Shown: positions 52,607-58,564 of the stretch, piece after piece | How the letters are laid out: the number at the start of each line of letters is the position of its first letter | How positions within the stretch are numbered: the stretch's first letter is position 1 | Assembly: GCA_947632515.1 (NCBI GenBank) | Contig: CANRPO010000012.1 | Coordinates: 1 to 64,000 of the forward strand | From: an uncultured Lachnospiraceae bacterium | Lineage (GTDB): Bacteria > Bacillota > Clostridia > Lachnospirales > Lachnospiraceae | Reading direction: 5' to 3' | DNA length: 64,000 bases | The notes under the pieces: generated by a model | Databases searched by the model: none | Told to the model about the DNA's origin: nothing | What the model saw: only the letters and a program-made list of their open reading frames with translations | Translations under genes and position numbers: made by a program

Positions 52607-53980
52607 ATGAGTTTGAGAAAGAAAAGTTGTTTTGGAATTGTGTTTGCGCTGCTTTTTTTCGTAAGTATGATCGTATTGATACTGATAGACAACACGATGA
52701 TTCGTTATGACGCTGCATTTTATAAACGATTGGAAGTGGAATATGCGAATGGGGGCATTGATAATCTATCGACAGGCTTTAGGGGATGGTTGTTTCCCTT
52801 TATTTTATCGATTTTTTATAGAATAGGCATGCTTGTGGAGAATGAATATTTGGGTGATTGGCTTATGGCGTCTGTTTTTTTCGCCGTTACATTCTCGGCA
52901 AGTTTCTATTATGTCAGCCAAATGCTGGAGATAGAGCAGTCAGATAAGTATGCTGTTTGTGTGGGAGGGGGTATTTCCGGAATCATCTTTTTTATCTTTT
53001 TTAGAGGATTATTTATTTATCCTTTGTCAGATTTTTGCGCATTTTCGTTCGCTTTGTTGGACATTATTCTTATACACGATATTGTGAAAAATGAGAGAAG
53101 GCAGGAAAAGTGGAAGGGTGTAGAGGCATATATTGCGGGTTTTTGTCTGTACGGAGTATATAACATCAGAACAATTTATTTATTTTTGTTTATGGCCTGC
53201 CTGTTGCTTTTGACGATTTGGCAATTGTGCGAGAAGAAATGGAAACAGCTTGCGTTGACTTTGCCGGCTTGTCTTGCCGGAATATTATCTTGTGCTATAC
53301 CGCAGATAAAGCTGAATTATCGCCTGTTGGGTATACTTTCATGGAAGGTTCCCACGGAAGGGTTAATGCTAAAGCAGTTACAGTGGGGAATATCGTGGGA
53401 GAGGTATGCGACATATGTTGGGGAATCGGCACAGTATGATAGTGCGGCGATGTACTTTGTGGATAAGATCGGGCAAAATCTTTTAGACAGTGCCGGAATC
53501 GTAGAATTCTCATCATATAGACAGTTTATTAAATTGGTGTTGAGTCATCCGTTAGATTTCCTGGGGGTTTATGTGCGCCACTTTCTTAACATGCTGTATC
53601 CTATATATCCCAATCAGTATATTTATGATATTACAAAGGATAAAAGCCTGTTGCTTATTTTGTTTTATACGCTGTGCTTTGTAGCCGTTTCCGCTTTTCT
53701 GTATTCATTTAAGCCGAAAAGAGACAGATGGATCTGGCTTGGAATGATTTTGCTGCCGTGCTTTTGTATTCTTCCGGGAGCGGTGGAGATCAGATTTTTT
53801 ATCGCTCTTCATTTTGTAATTTATATGTACGCTATATTGGGATTTAAAGATTTTATTGTCCGTTTTTGGACTAACAGAGGAAAATATATTGCAGCTTATC
53901 TCGTCGGTTTTGCACTCTACATTGCATATGCAGGATCCATGCTTGGGACCACTGCAAACGGTATTGCAACTATCAACTGA
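52607..53980 (+). CDS. Polytopic membrane protein, GT-C-like
   Basis: A protein of 457 residues with about ten helices. The first outward loop has MIRYDAAFYKRLEVEY near residue 31, with an Asp in the position expected for GT-C enzymes. No further family motif is recognised. Codon use is AT-richer than in genes before 52500. Its TGA overlaps the ATG of a GtrB-like GT2 (TGATG), so the two form a likely donor-maker and transferase pair, as at 36787 and 38289. GAGGTG lies 13 bases before the ATG. Confidence 0.6.
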   Translation: MSLRKKSCFGIVFALLFFVSMIVLILIDNTMIRYDAAFYKRLEVEYANGGIDNLSTGFRGWLFPFILSIFYRIGMLVENEYLGDWLMASVFFAVTFSASFYYVSQMLEIEQSDKYAVCVGGGISGIIFFIFFRGLFIYPLSDFCAFSFALLDIILIHDIVKNERRQEKWKGVEAYIAGFCLYGVYNIRTIYLFLFMACLLLLTIWQLCEKKWKQLALTLPACLAGILSCAIPQIKLNYRLLGILSWKVPTEGLMLKQLQWGISWERYATYVGESAQYDSAAMYFVDKIGQNLLDSAGIVEFSSYRQFIKLVLSHPLDFLGVYVRHFLNMLYPIYPNQYIYDITKDKSLLLILFYTLCFVAVSAFLYSFKPKRDRWIWLGMILLPCFCILPGAVEIRFFIALHFVIYMYAILGFKDFIVRFWTNRGKYIAAYLVGFALYIAYAGSMLGTTANGIATIN

Positions 53981-54954
53981 TGTTGACACGGCAGGGGGGG
54001 GGGAAGAAGATTGTGAAAATATCGTTGGTCATACCAGTATATTTTAATCAGGACAATTTACCGCCACTCTATTATGATATTGTGGACAAGCTGTATCCGC
54101 ATACAGAGTACGAGTGGGAAATTATTATGGTAAATGACGGGTCTACGGATAACAGCTATAAGGTTATGAAAGAATTGGCGGCAAAAGATTCTCGCATAAA
54201 GGCGATCAGTCTGTCGCGTAATTTCGGGTCGCATGCAGCTATTTTGTGTGGACTTTCAAAGTGCAGCGGGGACTGTGCCGTTGTCAAGGCAGCGGATCTG
54301 CAGGAACCGACAGAATTGGTCATTGAGATGATAAAACGTTGGGAACGAGGCTACAATGTCGTGCTGGCAGTCAGAGAGGGGCGTGAAGAGAGCAAAAGTC
54401 AGACTGCGTTTGCAAATTTATACTATACCATGGTCCGCAAATTTATGTTGGAGGCAATGCCGAAAGGAGGATTTGACGTATATTTGGTAGATCGTAAAGT
54501 GATAAATGTCCTGACGGCACTTGATGAGACAAACAGCGCTCTTACCGGCCAAATATTGTGGAGCGGTTTTAAGACAGATAAGGTATACTATACCAGACTT
54601 GCAAGGGAGATTGGCAAAAGCAGATGGACATTTAAGAAAAAAATTAAATTAGTTGCAGATACTTTGTTCAGTTTTTCCACTTTACCGATAAAAGTTGTGA
54701 CAATAGTGGGAATTTTTTCTTTCATAGGAGCGATTCTATGGGCGTGTGTGGAAGTGATATGCAAGCTATTGGGGCTGATCAATGTAAGCGGTTGGACGAC
54801 TCTTTTTATTTTCAATTTGTTTAGTTTTGGCGTAATCATGTTTACGATGGGGATTTTGGGGGAGTATATCTGGCGAATATTCGATGCCTCCAGGAAACGT
54901 CCGCCATATATAATTGAAGATGAAAATGAAATAAAGGAAGAGAAAATAGAATGA
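53980..54954 (+). CDS. GtrB-like polyprenyl-phosphate glycosyltransferase with poly-G start
   Basis: A protein of 324 residues. The GT-A domain has SLVIPVYFNQDNLPPLY, MVNDGSTDNS near 50 and VKAADLQEP near 102. Two helices near 235-255 and 270-295 follow, as in GtrB/ArnC-type enzymes that make undecaprenyl-phosphate sugars. ATG 53980 overlaps the previous stop (TGATG). A run of ten Gs (53994-54003) follows in frame. With nine or eleven Gs, translation from this ATG would stop at 54014-54016 or about 54045. GTG 54013 is an alternative start that would make the G run part of the ribosome site. Either way, the tract suggests variable expression. Confidence 0.85.
   Translation: MLTRQGGGKKIVKISLVIPVYFNQDNLPPLYYDIVDKLYPHTEYEWEIIMVNDGSTDNSYKVMKELAAKDSRIKAISLSRNFGSHAAILCGLSKCSGDCAVVKAADLQEPTELVIEMIKRWERGYNVVLAVREGREESKSQTAFANLYYTMVRKFMLEAMPKGGFDVYLVDRKVINVLTALDETNSALTGQILWSGFKTDKVYYTRLAREIGKSRWTFKKKIKLVADTLFSFSTLPIKVVTIVGIFSFIGAILWACVEVICKLLGLINVSGWTTLFIFNLFSFGVIMFTMGILGEYIWRIFDASRKRPPYIIEDENEIKEEKIE
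53994..54003 (+). repeat. Homopolymeric G10 tract, candidate phase-variation site
   Basis: Ten consecutive Gs lie between codons 5 and 8 of the GT2 frame read from ATG 53980, in an AT-rich part of the window. In this length the frame is open. Loss or gain of one G brings an early stop. Such tracts change length by slipped-strand mispairing. A read-length error in the assembly is the main alternative. Confidence 0.7.
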
Positions 54955-55496
54955 TAGATTTGCGGGAGCTGCGGGAAGACGACGCGGAAAATATGTTAGA
55001 GTGGATGCATGATCCGGAATGTCAAAGGGGCTTTCAAAAAGATATGATGAGCATATCGTTGGAGGAGGCAAGACGATTTTGCAGAGAAGCCAGGCTCACT
55101 GCGGATCTTCAAAACGGGCAGAGCATGCATTGGGCGGTTATAGATGAAACAGATGAATATTTGGGGACGATCAGTTTAAAGAAGATCAACATGGATTGTC
55201 ATTCGGCTGAGTTTGCAATCAGTTTAAGGCAGAAAGCTCATGGACGGGGAGTAGGCGTTGAGGCAATACGTTTGCTGCTGAAAAAAGGATTTGAGGAATT
55301 GGGGCTGCACCGTATTTATATGACTGTACTGGCTGACAATATAGCTGCGATCAGGCTTTATGAGAAGTGCGGATTCATATATGAAGGGGAACTGCGGGAT
55401 CATATTTTTGCAAGAGGACACTATATTTCGTGGAAAATATATGCAATGCTTGACAGGGAATACAAAAATAATACTTTTATGAGGGGAGAGAGCTGA
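54951..55496 (+). CDS. GNAT N-acetyltransferase
   Basis: A protein of 181 residues with a RimJ/RimL-type GNAT fold. It has an [11 protein letters not shown] strand, the acetyl-CoA loop [15 protein letters not shown] near residue 92, and [21 protein letters not shown] near 125. It starts in the stop of the GT2 (ATGA) and its own stop overlaps the aminotransferase ATG (TGATG). With the next two genes, the likely substrate is a dTDP-3-amino-3,6-dideoxyhexose, giving the 3-acetamido sugar. This is inference from order, since known FdtC/QdtC-type enzymes can be of other folds. Confidence 0.83.
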
Positions 55497-56593
55497 TGGA
55501 AAAAATAATGCCGAACAGATTAGATCGGGGATTTTTTATGTATCAACAGGAGTTTGAGGCTAAAGCCCTGGAAGTTTTGCGCTCCGGATGGTATGTCCTT
55601 GGGGAAGAGGTATCCGGCTTTGAACGGGAATTTGCAGAGTATCTTGGTGCAAAGTATTGTATAGGACTTGCCAGTGGTTTGGATGCGCTTTGGATCGCTT
55701 TCAGAGTTTTGGGAATAGGAACAGGCGATGAGGTTATTGTGCAGGGAAATACCTATATTGCCAGTGTGATGGGAATAACAATAAATGGCGCGACCCCCGT
55801 TTTTGTGGAACCGGATGAGTATTTTAATATAGACGCATCCAAGATTGAAGAGAAGATCACGGATAGGACTAAGGCCATCTTAGTGGTCCATTTATATGGT
55901 CAGGCCTCTAATATGGAGCCTATTGTGAAATTGTGTAAAAAATATAACTTAAAATTAGTTGAGGACTGTGCTCAGTCACATGGCGCAAAGTATGGGGGCC
56001 GGATGACGGGCACGTTTGGTGATATTGGCTGCTTTTCTTTTTATCCATCTAAAAATCTTGGCGCGTTCGGAGATGGAGGGGCGATTGTTACAAATGATCC
56101 GAAGCTGGCTGACGATGTGAGGGTTTTTCGAAATTATGGGAGCGAAAAGCGTTATTATAATCGCGTTGTTGGGACTAATTCTCGTCTGGATGAAATACAG
56201 GCAGGACTCCTGCGAGTGCGATTAAGTCACATGAAGGAATTAGAAGAGGATAAATGCCGTATTTCACAGAGATATTTGAAAGAATTAAATAGTCCTTTCG
56301 TCATATTGCCAGCTGTCCGGGAGAAGGCCACACATATATGGCATCAGTTTGTTATTAGAACAAGCCGCAGACAGGAATTGATAGACTATTTAGACAGCAA
56401 AGGAATAGGAACAATCATCCACTATCCGATTCCGCCGCATCTCTCCGAGGCATACAAGTATTTACAGATCTCCAAAGGAAGTCTGCCAATAACAGAAACA
56501 TATGCAGCATCGGTATTGTCCATCCCAATGTATAACGGAATGACGGAAGATGAACAAAGTTATGTAATTGACGCAATTAATGAGTGGAGATAA
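55496..56593 (+). CDS. DegT/DnrJ/EryC1/StrS sugar aminotransferase (FdtB/QdtB-like)
   Basis: A PLP-dependent enzyme of 365 residues. Conserved parts are [18 protein letters not shown] near residue 30, [10 protein letters not shown] near 58, [10 protein letters not shown] near 159 and [16 protein letters not shown] near 181, whose Lys should form the internal aldimine. It resembles 3-aminotransferases acting on dTDP-3-keto-6-deoxyhexoses with glutamate as donor. The adjacent 3,4-ketoisomerase supports this over a 4-aminotransferase role. The dTDP-glucose genes rmlA and rmlB are not in the window, so the substrate must be made elsewhere. Confidence 0.9.
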
Positions 56594-56615
56594 GTTTATT
56601 TTGATGGAGGGAATT

Positions 56616-57038
56616 ATGCATAATATGAATAGGGTTAAAATGATCGATTTTCAGCAGCGAGGCGATGAGAGAGGGCATCTGGTTATCGTAGAAGGCGGTA
56701 TAGATGTGCCGTTTGAAATTAAAAGAGTGTTCTATATATATGGCTCTGACCGAAAAGTGATCAGGGGACAGCATGCGAACAGAAAAACAGAGTTTGTAAT
56801 GATCAATGTATCGGGGACAAGTAAGGTGAGCGTAAAGGATGGGGAAGGCAATGAGGCTATTTTTTGTTTGAACAGACCGCATACAGGTATTTATCTTCCG
56901 ACGATGGTGTGGAAAGATATGTATGATTTCAGCGAGGATTCAGTATTGTTGGTCTTGGCAAGCGAACACTATGATCCGGATGAATATATTCGTGATTATA
57001 ATGTGTTTGTGCAAGAGATTGGCACAAAACGTACATGA
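56616..57038 (+). CDS. dTDP-4-keto-6-deoxyglucose 3,4-ketoisomerase (FdtA/QdtA-like cupin)
   Basis: A cupin of 140 residues. It has DERGHLVIVEGG near residue 14, FEIKRVFYIYGS, then VIRGQHANRKTEFVMINVSG near residue 48 with the conserved Arg-Gly-x-His, and YLPTMVWKDMYDFS near 90. These are the WxcM/FdtA sugar ketoisomerase blocks. GGAGG lies five bases before ATG 56616. Whether the product is the galacto (FdtA) or gluco (QdtA) form cannot be decided here. It overlaps the next start as ATGA. Confidence 0.88.
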   Translation: MHNMNRVKMIDFQQRGDERGHLVIVEGGIDVPFEIKRVFYIYGSDRKVIRGQHANRKTEFVMINVSGTSKVSVKDGEGNEAIFCLNRPHTGIYLPTMVWKDMYDFSEDSVLLVLASEHYDPDEYIRDYNVFVQEIGTKRT

Positions 57039-58564
57039 AAAAGCAGGGGCGGAACATTAGGAGAAAAACATTGATACGAAAATATATAGACAATATTTCA
57101 TTTACACATTTGGCGATCTTTGCCACTTTATTATTTGCTGTTTCGGTTATTCCGCTTTTGGCGCTTGGAAAATACAATGTAATGTGTGCAGATGATTACA
57201 GTAATGGCATAGCAATACATGATGTGTGGCTGGAAACCGGATCATTTTGGAAGGTTATTCAGTGTGCGGTAGAAGGTACCAGGAATCTGTATTTTGTATG
57301 GCAAGGAACATATGCGTCGTGTTTTTTAATGCATTTGTGCCCAATGAATTTCAATTATAAATTAGGGTTTGTAGTACCGACTATAATGATTAGCATGTTT
57401 TCAACGGCAGTTTATCTCATAGGAAGGCAAATATTTGTAAGATGGCTTGGGGCAGGAAAGAGGGAATACTCCTACATTGGGTTTATGCTGCTTTTTCTAT
57501 TCTGGCAGGTAATGGCAGCACCCTTTGACGGGCTATATTGGTACAATGGATCCACTCACTACATTTTAATGCAGGCATTTGGTTTCTTTATGATAGCATT
57601 ACTTTCCGGTATTATTTGGACCGATCATACAAAGAGTATGGTTGCATGGAGTATTATGGCGTCTATACTTGGAGCAGTGGTTGGCGGGGGAAATTTAGTG
57701 ACAGGATTGCAGGCGGAAATAATCATTTCGCTTTTGTTGGCGTATGCGTTTATCATAGATAGGAAAAAGCTGTTTTATACGCTGATACCCTGGCTTTGTC
57801 TGACAGTTGGATTTATGATCAATGCCCTTGCGCCGGGAAATGCTGCAAGAGGGGAATTGCTTGAAGGATATGGAGCATTTAAGGCGATTGCATTTTCTTT
57901 TTATTATGCTGTCATATATATAGTAAAATGGACTTCTCCGCTGGTCGTGTTGGTCTGGACTGCATTGCTATGGACTATGTGGGAGATTGGAAGAAACTCA
58001 CAAAAGGAATTTCAACACCCTTTTCTGGTTACGGCGAGTGTTTTCTGTCTTGTATCCTCCATGTATACGCCGACCTTATATGCTATGGGCGATGCGGATT
58101 TAATACGCGTGCATAACATTATTCAGATGACGTATTACATTGGACTGTTTTCTGTCACTACATATTGGTGTGGCTGGTTTACTCATCGGGATTTCTATAT
58201 ACAAAAATGCAGAGAGCAGGAAATGAAACGCCACAGACGCAATTCTTTCGGGAAAATAGTGACAGGGATTGCATTGTTGGCGGTTATTGTCGTGTGGACA
58301 TGTACGGCGGATAAGAATACTTATACCGGAATTTCAGCAATGCGCTCCATTGTAAAGGGTGAGGCGCAGACTTTTTATGAGGAAGAATTGATAAGACGGG
58401 AGATGTATTTGGATGACAGTATGCTGGATATTGTAGTGGAGGTGCATACGGCACGTCCGTTTTTATTTGAAGATCGGGATTTGAGCTGGGACGCTGATTA
58501 TTGGATTAACCAGTCGGTGACACATTATTTTCATAAGAATAGAATTGTTAGACGGGTGGAGTGA
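57035..58564 (+). CDS. DUF6056-like polytopic membrane protein (copy 2)
   Basis: A protein of 509 residues, paralogous along its length to the one at 12354. It shares MCADDYSNGIAIHDVW, WQGTYASCFLMHLCPMNF, GLYWYNGSTHYILMQ, VGGGNLVTGLQAEI, ALAPGNAARGE and CTADKNTYTGISAMRS. It lacks the charged insertion of the first copy and is coded with many more A/T-ending codons, so the two were not made by a recent duplication in this genome. About ten helices are predicted. A GT-C-like role is likely but unproven. Confidence 0.72.
   Translation: MKKQGRNIRRKTLIRKYIDNISFTHLAIFATLLFAVSVIPLLALGKYNVMCADDYSNGIAIHDVWLETGSFWKVIQCAVEGTRNLYFVWQGTYASCFLMHLCPMNFNYKLGFVVPTIMISMFSTAVYLIGRQIFVRWLGAGKREYSYIGFMLLFLFWQVMAAPFDGLYWYNGSTHYILMQAFGFFMIALLSGIIWTDHTKSMVAWSIMASILGAVVGGGNLVTGLQAEIIISLLLAYAFIIDRKKLFYTLIPWLCLTVGFMINALAPGNAARGELLEGYGAFKAIAFSFYYAVIYIVKWTSPLVVLVWTALLWTMWEIGRNSQKEFQHPFLVTASVFCLVSSMYTPTLYAMGDADLIRVHNIIQMTYYIGLFSVTTYWCGWFTHRDFYIQKCREQEMKRHRRNSFGKIVTGIALLAVIVVWTCTADKNTYTGISAMRSIVKGEAQTFYEEELIRREMYLDDSMLDIVVEVHTARPFLFEDRDLSWDADYWINQSVTHYFHKNRIVRRVE

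What the first reader, a model, noticed from the sequence alone, without database searches (positions are those of the whole stretch)
53980..54016. Ten-G tract at the start of a GtrB-like gene: candidate phase-variable glycan switch
Seen: G10 at 53994-54003 keeps the frame from ATG 53980 open. With G9 the frame reaches TGA at 54014-54016, and with G11 it stops near 54045. The previous gene's TGA overlaps this ATG. If GTG 54013 is the true start, the tract would instead sit in the ribosome site and tune translation. Known: gtr-type side-chain cassettes are often phase variable in other bacteria. Inference: the GT-C/GtrB pair here switches on and off.
Basis: partly seen in the sequence, partly recalled or inferred. 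Interest (0 to 1): 0.78.

Follow-up and report, generated by a model that had tools for sequence, protein, structure and literature searches.

The report
Ten-G tract in a ribosome-binding site
A run of ten Gs in front of a sugar-transfer gene is one of about 64 unusually long G runs in this bacterium's genome, a pattern like that of bacteria which randomly switch surface genes; at this gene the run sits where the ribosome binds, so it more likely tunes the gene, if it does anything, than turns it on and off.

Summary
The G10 (53994-54003) and its three reading frames are exactly as described. The proposed on/off frameshift is not supported at this gene. All 13 homologues inspected at >=63% identity have a start codon (11 ATG, 2 GTG) at the GTG 54013 position. 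The nearest (80%, same preceding gene) has AAGGAG there and a stop directly before its GTG. The tract is predicted to pair with the anti-Shine-Dalgarno at -10.7 kcal/mol, unchanged from G8 to G14; ATG 53980 scores -2.9.

The phase-variation idea gains support elsewhere. Exact G runs in this genome number 4 (G7), 4 (G8), 60 (G9), 4 (G10), none longer. A G9 peak recurs in 10 of 77 genus genomes, clustered on a MutS tree, but 2 of 397 family genomes sampled. Tracts occur in glycan, acyltransferase and other genes, in promoter-like spacers, and 4-13 nt before starts (7 of 64; 0.7 expected). In a relative, an acyltransferase gene changes frame at a G10. This looks like a poly-G phasome in a Lachnospiraceae lineage that keeps MutS. 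Enrichment in surface genes depends on grouping. Length variation was not tested; no reads were available.

The parts
52607..53980 (+). Gene before the tract: GT-C-like membrane protein (457 aa); its TGA (53978-53980) overlaps ATG 53980
   Evidence: ORF; no Pfam hit, GT-C is inferred by eye from length and hydrophobic sequence; 51% identical to the gene before gtrB in L026
53980..53982 (+). ATG overlapping the previous stop (TGATG); possible coupled start of an 11-residue extension or of a short overlapping reading frame
   Evidence: pairing of the preceding 20 nt with the anti-SD is -2.9 kcal/mol, weaker than the mean of 1000 random 20-mers (-4.0); 2 of 11 other starts checked in the window are as weak
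53994..54003 (+). G10 tract, one of 64 runs of >=9 G in this assembly, one of four G10
53994..54012 (+). Ribosome-binding region of GTG 54013: tract plus fixed 9-nt spacer AAGAAGATT
   Evidence: -10.7 kcal/mol with a generic anti-SD, the same for G8 to G14; AAGGAG at this place in L026
54013..54954 (+). gtrB-like polyprenyl-phosphate glycosyltransferase (313 aa), preferred start GTG 54013
   Evidence: PF00535; GtrB Sll0501 structure 5ekp E=1.5e-53, ArnC-type transferase 9bhc E=2.7e-39; 13 of 13 homologues at >=63% identity have a start codon at this position
54951..55496 (+). GNAT acetyltransferase, likely sugar N-acetyltransferase (role inferred)
   Evidence: PF13302 E=5.6e-29
55496..56593 (+). 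QdtB-like sugar aminotransferase
   Evidence: PF01041; QdtB structure 3frk E=3.4e-120
56568..57038 (+). QdtA/FdtA-like dTDP-sugar 3,4-ketoisomerase (ORF as listed; the match begins at residue 22)
   Evidence: PF05523; QdtA structure 4zu7 E=2.1e-34
57035..58564 (+). DUF6056 membrane protein; another DUF6056 gene of this genome (L055) holds a G9
   Evidence: PF19528

Best explanation
The G10 belongs to a lineage-specific, genome-wide set of long G tracts with a preferred length of nine, which look like slipped-strand contingency loci of a Lachnospiraceae. At gtrB the tract fills the ribosome-binding site of the real start, GTG 54013. Because any long G run pairs equally well and the spacer to GTG is fixed, changing its length should leave GtrB made. 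Length would change only what ribosomes that restart at the overlapping ATG 53980 do. With G10 they would add an 11-residue N-terminal extension. With G9, the usual length in this genome, they would stop at TGA 54014, overlapping the GTG, and could restart there. With G11 they would run past the GTG to 54045 and might hinder it. So the locus is at most a tuner or isoform switch. Shown: sequence, frames, run-length statistics, homologue starts. Predicted: pairing. Inferred: slippage, restart at ATG, effect on expression.
For: Exact-run counts G7 4, G8 4, G9 60, G10 4, >=11 none. Same peak in 10 of 77 genus genomes with >=25 G9 against 0-10 G7; the other 67 have a median of 4 G9. 2 of 397 family genomes sampled reach 25, one of them this genome. 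The high genomes cluster on a MutS tree of 20 chosen genomes: 3 changes against 6.8 for shuffled labels, 1 of 500 shuffles as low. 7 of 64 tracts lie 4-13 nt before an ORF start, 0.70 expected from 219 of 20,000 random positions, binomial P 7e-6. In relative G055 (L119) an Acyl_transf_3 gene lies in two frames that meet at a G10, the pieces matching profile 2-187 and 174-325 (E 1.3e-5 and 7.6e-6, each below the curated cut-off). Start site: 13 of 13 homologues at >=63% identity have ATG (11) or GTG (2) at the 54013 position; 5 of these have an in-frame stop directly or one codon before it, which excludes an extension. L026: stop, AAGGAG, GTG, behind the same GT-C gene. Pairing -10.7 for GTG against -2.9 for ATG, flat from G8 to G14.
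Against: No read or strain data: variation is unproven. The very sharp peak at nine (60 of 64 tracts) would suit tracts that seldom change, or an unknown length control. The tree does not make the high-G9 genomes one clade: strongly supported branches force at least 2 changes, and three genomes with 10-13 G9 runs fall among them. ATG 53980 is open with G10 (a one-in-three event by chance); 2 of 11 other starts checked in the window have equally weak pairing; 2 of the 13 homologues (L094, L103) also have an in-frame ATG 22 and 7 codons upstream; and some tracts of the set lie just after an ATG (AraC gene L053; GT1 gene L134 in G005), so an ATG start here is not excluded. Enrichment in strict glycan genes is not significant (10 of 64 against 0 of 20 control ORFs, Fisher P 0.11); the wider surface class (16 of 64 against 0 of 20, P 0.0095) was grouped after seeing the hits, and P rises to 0.06 if a control kinase with a DUF285 stretch (L157) is called surface. 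One of the seven start-site tracts (L046) is doubtful: its ATG is not conserved in L133; with six, P is 8e-5. L026's own genome has no G9 run.
Confidence: 0.6

Rival explanations
1. One reading: translation starts at ATG 53980, coupled to the previous gene; G10 is ON, G9 and G11 are OFF.
For: Frames fit; the TGATG overlap could couple translation; other tracts of the set lie within the first codons of genes (L053; L134, L142); weak pairing is no bar, since 2 of 11 other window starts have it.
Against: GTG 54013 has a strong predicted ribosome site, ATG does not; all 13 inspected homologues at >=63% identity have a start codon at the GTG position and 5 cannot be extended upstream; with G9 or G11 the GTG remains available.
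Confidence: 0.2
2. The tract is only a ribosome-binding site that drifted into a G run; length is neutral and nothing switches at this gene, even if other tracts do. (This overlaps with the best explanation, of which it is the no-effect end.)
For: Predicted pairing is saturated from G8 to G14 and the spacer is fixed; G runs before starts are seen at other genes of the set (L007, L045, L046, L047, L049, L051, L057).
Against: The tract is one of a discrete long class rather than a G4-G6 run, and the consequences of length for the overlapping ATG frame remain possible.
Confidence: 0.35
3. The long G runs are sequencing or assembly artefacts.
For: In relatives, 7 of 14 stretches fetched around longer runs have the run beside N stretches or a contig end (L079-L082, L084, L087, L092); Illumina trouble at G tracts is reported (PMC9187656, passages seen).
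Against: The tracts printed for the own genome have ordinary sequence on both sides; the trait is clustered on the tree across separate assemblies; two tract positions recur between species (L113/L068, L133/L046).
Confidence: 0.05

Closest known systems
Poly-G contingency loci of Campylobacter jejuni (29 poly-G/C tracts in NCTC11168, 23 of them in coding regions; PMC8437040, passages seen)
   Same: Many long G tracts per genome, some in surface-sugar genes; coding tracts change the frame
   Different: Here a Lachnospiraceae genome with 64 tracts (window 51% G+C), a very sharp peak at nine, and MutS present; some tracts lie in ribosome sites and promoter-like spacers; switching not shown
G-tract replication-slippage switch of Bifidobacterium breve sortase pili (PMC9187656, abstract and passages seen)
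   Same: Gut commensal, intragenic G tract, two ORFs joined or split by tract length, as L119 suggests
   Different: Shown there by deep sequencing at two loci; here dozens of loci, inferred from assemblies only
Salmonella glycosyltransferase (O-antigen modification) operons (PMC11868660, section 8 read)
   Same: Glycosyltransferase cassettes that modify a surface glycan; that gtr operons use a GtrB-type carrier step is recalled
   Different: Phase variation there is predicted to be epigenetic (Dam/OxyR), not by a G tract; GtrA was not looked for in the window
Poly-G/poly-C promoter-spacer switches of Neisseria porA/opc (recalled, not looked up)
   Same: Seven G9 tracts here lie between -35-like and TATAAT boxes (L040 twice, L042, L043, L163, L165, L167)
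   Different: Read by eye from sequence; no expression data; not at the window's gene

Membership tests
GtrB-type polyprenyl-phosphate glycosyltransferase | GT2 catalytic domain with homology over nearly the whole chain to GtrB/ArnC | tested here: met
   PF00535; residues 2-303 of 313 match GtrB Sll0501 (5ekp, 1.5e-53) and 2-302 ArnC-type transferases
GtrB-type polyprenyl-phosphate glycosyltransferase | Transfer of sugar to a polyprenyl phosphate carrier | not testable with these tools
   Biochemistry needed
Poly-G phase-variable (contingency) locus | Tract longer than composition predicts | tested here: met
   Separate G9/G10 class genome-wide; against simple shuffles of the window alone it is not exceptional
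Poly-G phase-variable (contingency) locus | Tract length varies by single bases between cells or strains | not testable with these tools
Poly-G phase-variable (contingency) locus | Change of length alters expression of this gene (ON/OFF) | tested here: inconclusive
   ATG frame would shift, but GTG 54013 with the tract as ribosome site is predicted to stay usable at G8-G14
Poly-G phasome of a genome | Ten or more such tracts | tested here: met
   64 runs of >=9 G
Poly-G phasome of a genome | Bias of the tracts to surface genes | tested here: inconclusive
   ORFs at 50 of 64 tracts scanned: strict glycan class 10 of 64 against 0 of 20 controls, P 0.11; wider surface class 16 of 64 against 0 of 20, P 0.0095, or 0.06 with one doubtful control counted as surface; grouping made after the fact
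Poly-G phasome of a genome | Genes caught in a frame-shifted state at a tract | tested here: met
   One case with Pfam support on both pieces, L119 in relative G055; two candidates without Pfam support in G058 (L086). Not shown for the own genome

The most novel reading that the evidence does not exclude
A lineage of Lachnospiraceae carries about 25-80 exact-G9 tracts per genome in coding starts, gene bodies, promoter spacers and ribosome sites of glycan, surface and signalling genes. This would be a phasome in a commensal family at least as large as that of Campylobacter, kept while MutS is present, with tract length held at nine by a length bias or control not yet described. The window's gtrB tract would be its ribosome-site class, giving three translational states by length modulo 3.
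Probability: 0.45. Interest if true: 0.8.

Novelty: new member of a known kind. Interest (0 to 1): 0.6.

Why it matters
[quoted passage not shown] A lineage of Lachnospiraceae, presumed gut commensals (one near relative is from goat rectum), with dozens of long G tracts would bear on it directly, and it can be checked from existing raw reads. The 10 searches made here listed, by title and abstract start, no paper on poly-G phase variation in Lachnospiraceae. One paper holds the words together (PMC6437147); its listing is about AB5 toxins and C. jejuni and it was not opened. The library is open-access only, so this is no proof of novelty. For the single gene the result is a caution: a long G run near a start can be a ribosome site and need not be an on/off switch.

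Tried and rejected
Chance homopolymer: rejected on the genome-wide run-length counts.

Loss of mismatch repair as the cause: a MutS_I domain was found in all 10 high-G9 genomes and in 74 of 77 of the genus; the three without it (G008, G023, G051) are 66-68% complete. MutL was not tested.

Pairs of very long G runs in relatives (G014, G024): these lie beside N stretches or contig ends and were set aside as likely artefacts; the N stretches were not pursued.

Glycan enrichment on the strict class alone: not significant (10 of 64 against 0 of 20, P 0.11). The wider class is sensitive to grouping (P 0.0095 or 0.06).

That homologues align from residue 1-2 (23 of 23 loci) was not used as evidence for the start, because the query itself began at GTG; the upstream frames were read instead. 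Of ten more distant homologues (about 50%), the five whose starts were printed (L098, L100, L109-L111) have ATG one codon earlier; L099, L101, L102, L108 and L112 were not caught by the motif used and were not inspected.

Tract positions shared between species: 29 tracts of G005 and G055 were compared with the own-genome stretches; two recur (L113/L068, L133/L046), and L124/L051 share a gene but not the place.

Two G058 membrane proteins suspected to be related gave no meaningful BLASTP match (E 0.22), so that guess is dropped.

The window's own tract is not among the 7 of 64 in the start-site test, because its frame is open for more than 30 codons upstream.

Not done: strain or read comparison, structure prediction, metagenome scan, viral-contig scan.

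Full report
Observation. The G10 is at 53994-54003, downstream of ATG 53980, which overlaps the previous gene's TGA (53978-53980), and upstream of GTG 54013. With ten Gs the ATG frame is open to the stop at 54952-54954 (324 aa); with one fewer it meets TGA 54014-54016, with one more TAA 54045-54047.

Gene and surroundings. The 313-residue product from GTG is a GT2 enzyme that matches GtrB (5ekp, E=1.5e-53) and ArnC-type undecaprenyl-phosphate transferases over nearly its whole length. It follows a GT-C-like membrane protein (no Pfam hit; judged by eye) and is followed by a GNAT acetyltransferase, a QdtB-like aminotransferase, a QdtA/FdtA-like ketoisomerase and a DUF6056 protein. By established knowledge of these families this would make a 3-acetamido-3,6-dideoxyhexose, load it on a lipid carrier and transfer it to a surface polymer. 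That role is inference.

Where translation starts. The 13 homologues with at least 63% identity that I inspected (L026-L029, L094-L097, L103-L107) all carry a start codon exactly at the position of GTG 54013: ATG in 11, GTG in L026 and L106. In L026, L095, L096 and L097 an in-frame stop stands directly before it, and in L027 one codon before, so no extension is possible there. Against this, L094 and L103 also have an in-frame ATG 22 and 7 codons upstream. L026 is the nearest homologue (80%), has the same GT-C gene in front (51%), and shows a canonical AAGGAG ribosome site and GTG where the window has its G tract; its genome has no G9 run. The 20 nt before GTG 54013 pair with a generic anti-SD at -10.7 kcal/mol; those before ATG 53980 at -2.9, weaker than the mean of 1000 random 20-mers (-4.0; 5% quantile -9.2). 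Two of 11 other starts checked in the window are as weak, so weak pairing alone does not exclude a start. The pairing energy is the same from G8 to G14 and the spacer to GTG is fixed at 9 nt. The most economical reading is that the tract is the ribosome site of GTG 54013 and that length changes leave it working. What would change with length is the fate of any ribosome restarting at ATG 53980: an N-terminal extension (G10), a stop overlapping the GTG (G9), or a run past the GTG (G11). That three-state tuner is an inference.

The genome-wide class. In this assembly (3.13 Mb, 83.7% complete) there are 4 exact G7, 4 G8, 60 G9 and 4 G10 runs and none longer. In 248 kb of window and tract surroundings G4, G5 and G6 number 882, 163 and 6, with no G7 or G8 (this sample was chosen around G9 tracts). 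Such a gap followed by a peak at nine is not a composition effect. In the genus, 10 of 77 genomes have 25-81 exact G9 runs against 0-10 G7 runs; the other 67 have a median of 4 and a maximum of 22 G9. In 397 genomes drawn from the family only G000 (60) and G259 (105) reach 25. On a MutS tree of 20 genomes that I chose (10 high, 10 low) the high ones lie in one part of the tree: 3 changes against 6.8 expected, 1 of 500 shuffles as low. They are not one clade: supported branches force at least 2 changes, and three genomes with 10-13 G9 runs lie among them. MutS is present in all ten.

Where the 64 tracts lie. All 64 were located. Open frames at or across 50 of them were scanned (60 frames, and the window's); the other 14 had no scanned frame, most having none of note. 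By my own reading, the strict glycan or envelope-polymer class holds 10: GT2 (window, L045, L050), Acyl_transf_3 (L006, L051), PS_pyruv_trans (L052), MBOAT (L067), DUF6056 (L055), PMT_2 (L063), sulfatase-like (L051). A wider surface class (plus CotH, GH25, two solute-binding proteins, beta-helix, and an SH3_3 match below its cut-off) holds 16. Among 20 ORFs at places I had set beforehand in the same genome I counted none, though L157, a kinase with a DUF285 stretch, might be called surface. Fisher P is 0.11 for the strict class and 0.0095 for the wider one, or 0.06 if L157 is counted. The wider class was grouped after seeing the hits, so the bias is suggestive, not settled. Other tract genes include EAL/GGDEF, AraC, DNA methylase and kinase genes; many tracts are intergenic or in ORFs without a Pfam hit. 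In G005 and G055, 20 frames at tracts gave acyltransferase (two genes, one in two pieces), GT1, CotH (two), methyltransferases, a formyltransferase, radical SAM, DUF268, DUF6020, GGDEF/EAL, a response regulator and an IS110 transposase, with no hit for 5. 7 of 64 own tracts lie 4-13 nt before an ORF start, against 0.70 expected from 219 of 20,000 random positions (binomial P 7e-6); one of the seven (L046) is doubtful because its ATG is not conserved in L133, and six give P 8e-5. The window's tract is not counted among the seven. Four tracts of this genome (L040 twice, L042, L043) and three of 20 looked at in relatives (L163, L165, L167, all G041) lie between a TTGACA/TTGCAA-like box and TATAAT with 16- or 19-bp spacers, read by eye.

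Signs of switching in relatives. In G055 an Acyl_transf_3 gene lies in two frames that meet at a G10: profile positions 2-187 in one, 174-325 in the other, each piece below the curated cut-off (L119), while in G005 a gene of the same family is whole across a G9 (L122). In G058 three genes beside a GT2 gene, membrane proteins by eye without a Pfam hit, carry G11, G15 and G13 inside the frame; two end soon after the tract (L086). Of 29 tracts of G005 and G055 compared with the own-genome stretches, two positions recur, both in G055: at the 3' end of a response-regulator gene (L068/L113) and in one intergenic stretch (L046/L133). These are what contingency loci would leave behind. They are not a measurement of slippage.

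Comparison with what is known. It works like the poly-G contingency loci of C. jejuni (29 tracts in NCTC11168, PMC8437040, passages seen) and the intragenic G tract of B. breve pili (PMC9187656, abstract and passages), where a length change was shown to matter. Membership as a phase-variable locus is not established for the window's tract, because length variation could not be tested and the gene is predicted to stay translatable at the lengths tried. Ten literature searches listed nothing on poly-G phase variation in Lachnospiraceae (open-access library, listings only). Orsi et al. 2010 (PMC2831843, abstract and outline seen) report over-represented poly(A) and poly(T) tracts in prokaryotic genes; their abstract does not mention poly-G.

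Verdict. Observation confirmed; single-gene on/off switch unlikely (0.2); the tract is best read as a ribosome site that belongs to a striking, lineage-specific set of G9 tracts. The set, not the single gene, is what deserves follow-up, and raw reads would settle it.

Noticed in passing
L040:10726 and 14262, L042:1533, L043:1669 (contig C5 of the own genome); L163, L165, L167 (G041): G9 tracts abutting TATAAT behind a TTGACA/TTGCAA-like box (16- or 19-bp spacers); on C5 they are followed within about 100 nt by a hairpin-like stretch and T run, as if driving short leader or small RNAs. Possible promoter-spacer phase variation; read by eye.
   Followed up: partly
L119 (G055:C1), tract at 1501: Acyltransferase (Acyl_transf_3) gene in two frames that meet at a G10 tract.
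   Followed up: partly
L086 (G058:C36) tracts at 2224, 4032, 7401: Three membrane-protein genes around a GT2 gene carry coding G11, G15 and G13 tracts; two reading frames end soon after the tract.
   Followed up: partly
G259 (another genus of the family), 1.6 Mb assembly, 68% complete: 105 exact G9 runs, an apparently separate second case of the G9 excess.
   Followed up: no
Own genome, exact-run counts G7 4, G8 4, G9 60, G10 4: The length peak at nine is far sharper than free slippage would suggest, although MutS is present; cause unknown.
   Followed up: partly
L046/L133 (G000/G055): Intergenic G9 at the same place in two species, followed by a conserved CGCTCCCCC stretch that could pair with it as a hairpin.
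   Followed up: no
L079-L082, L084, L087, L092 (G014, G024, G002, G058): Long G runs (G10-G21) beside N stretches or contig ends, probably sequencing or assembly artefacts.
   Followed up: no
window 54951-57038: GNAT, QdtB-like and QdtA-like genes form a likely 3-acetamido-3,6-dideoxyhexose pathway next to gtrB.
   Followed up: partly
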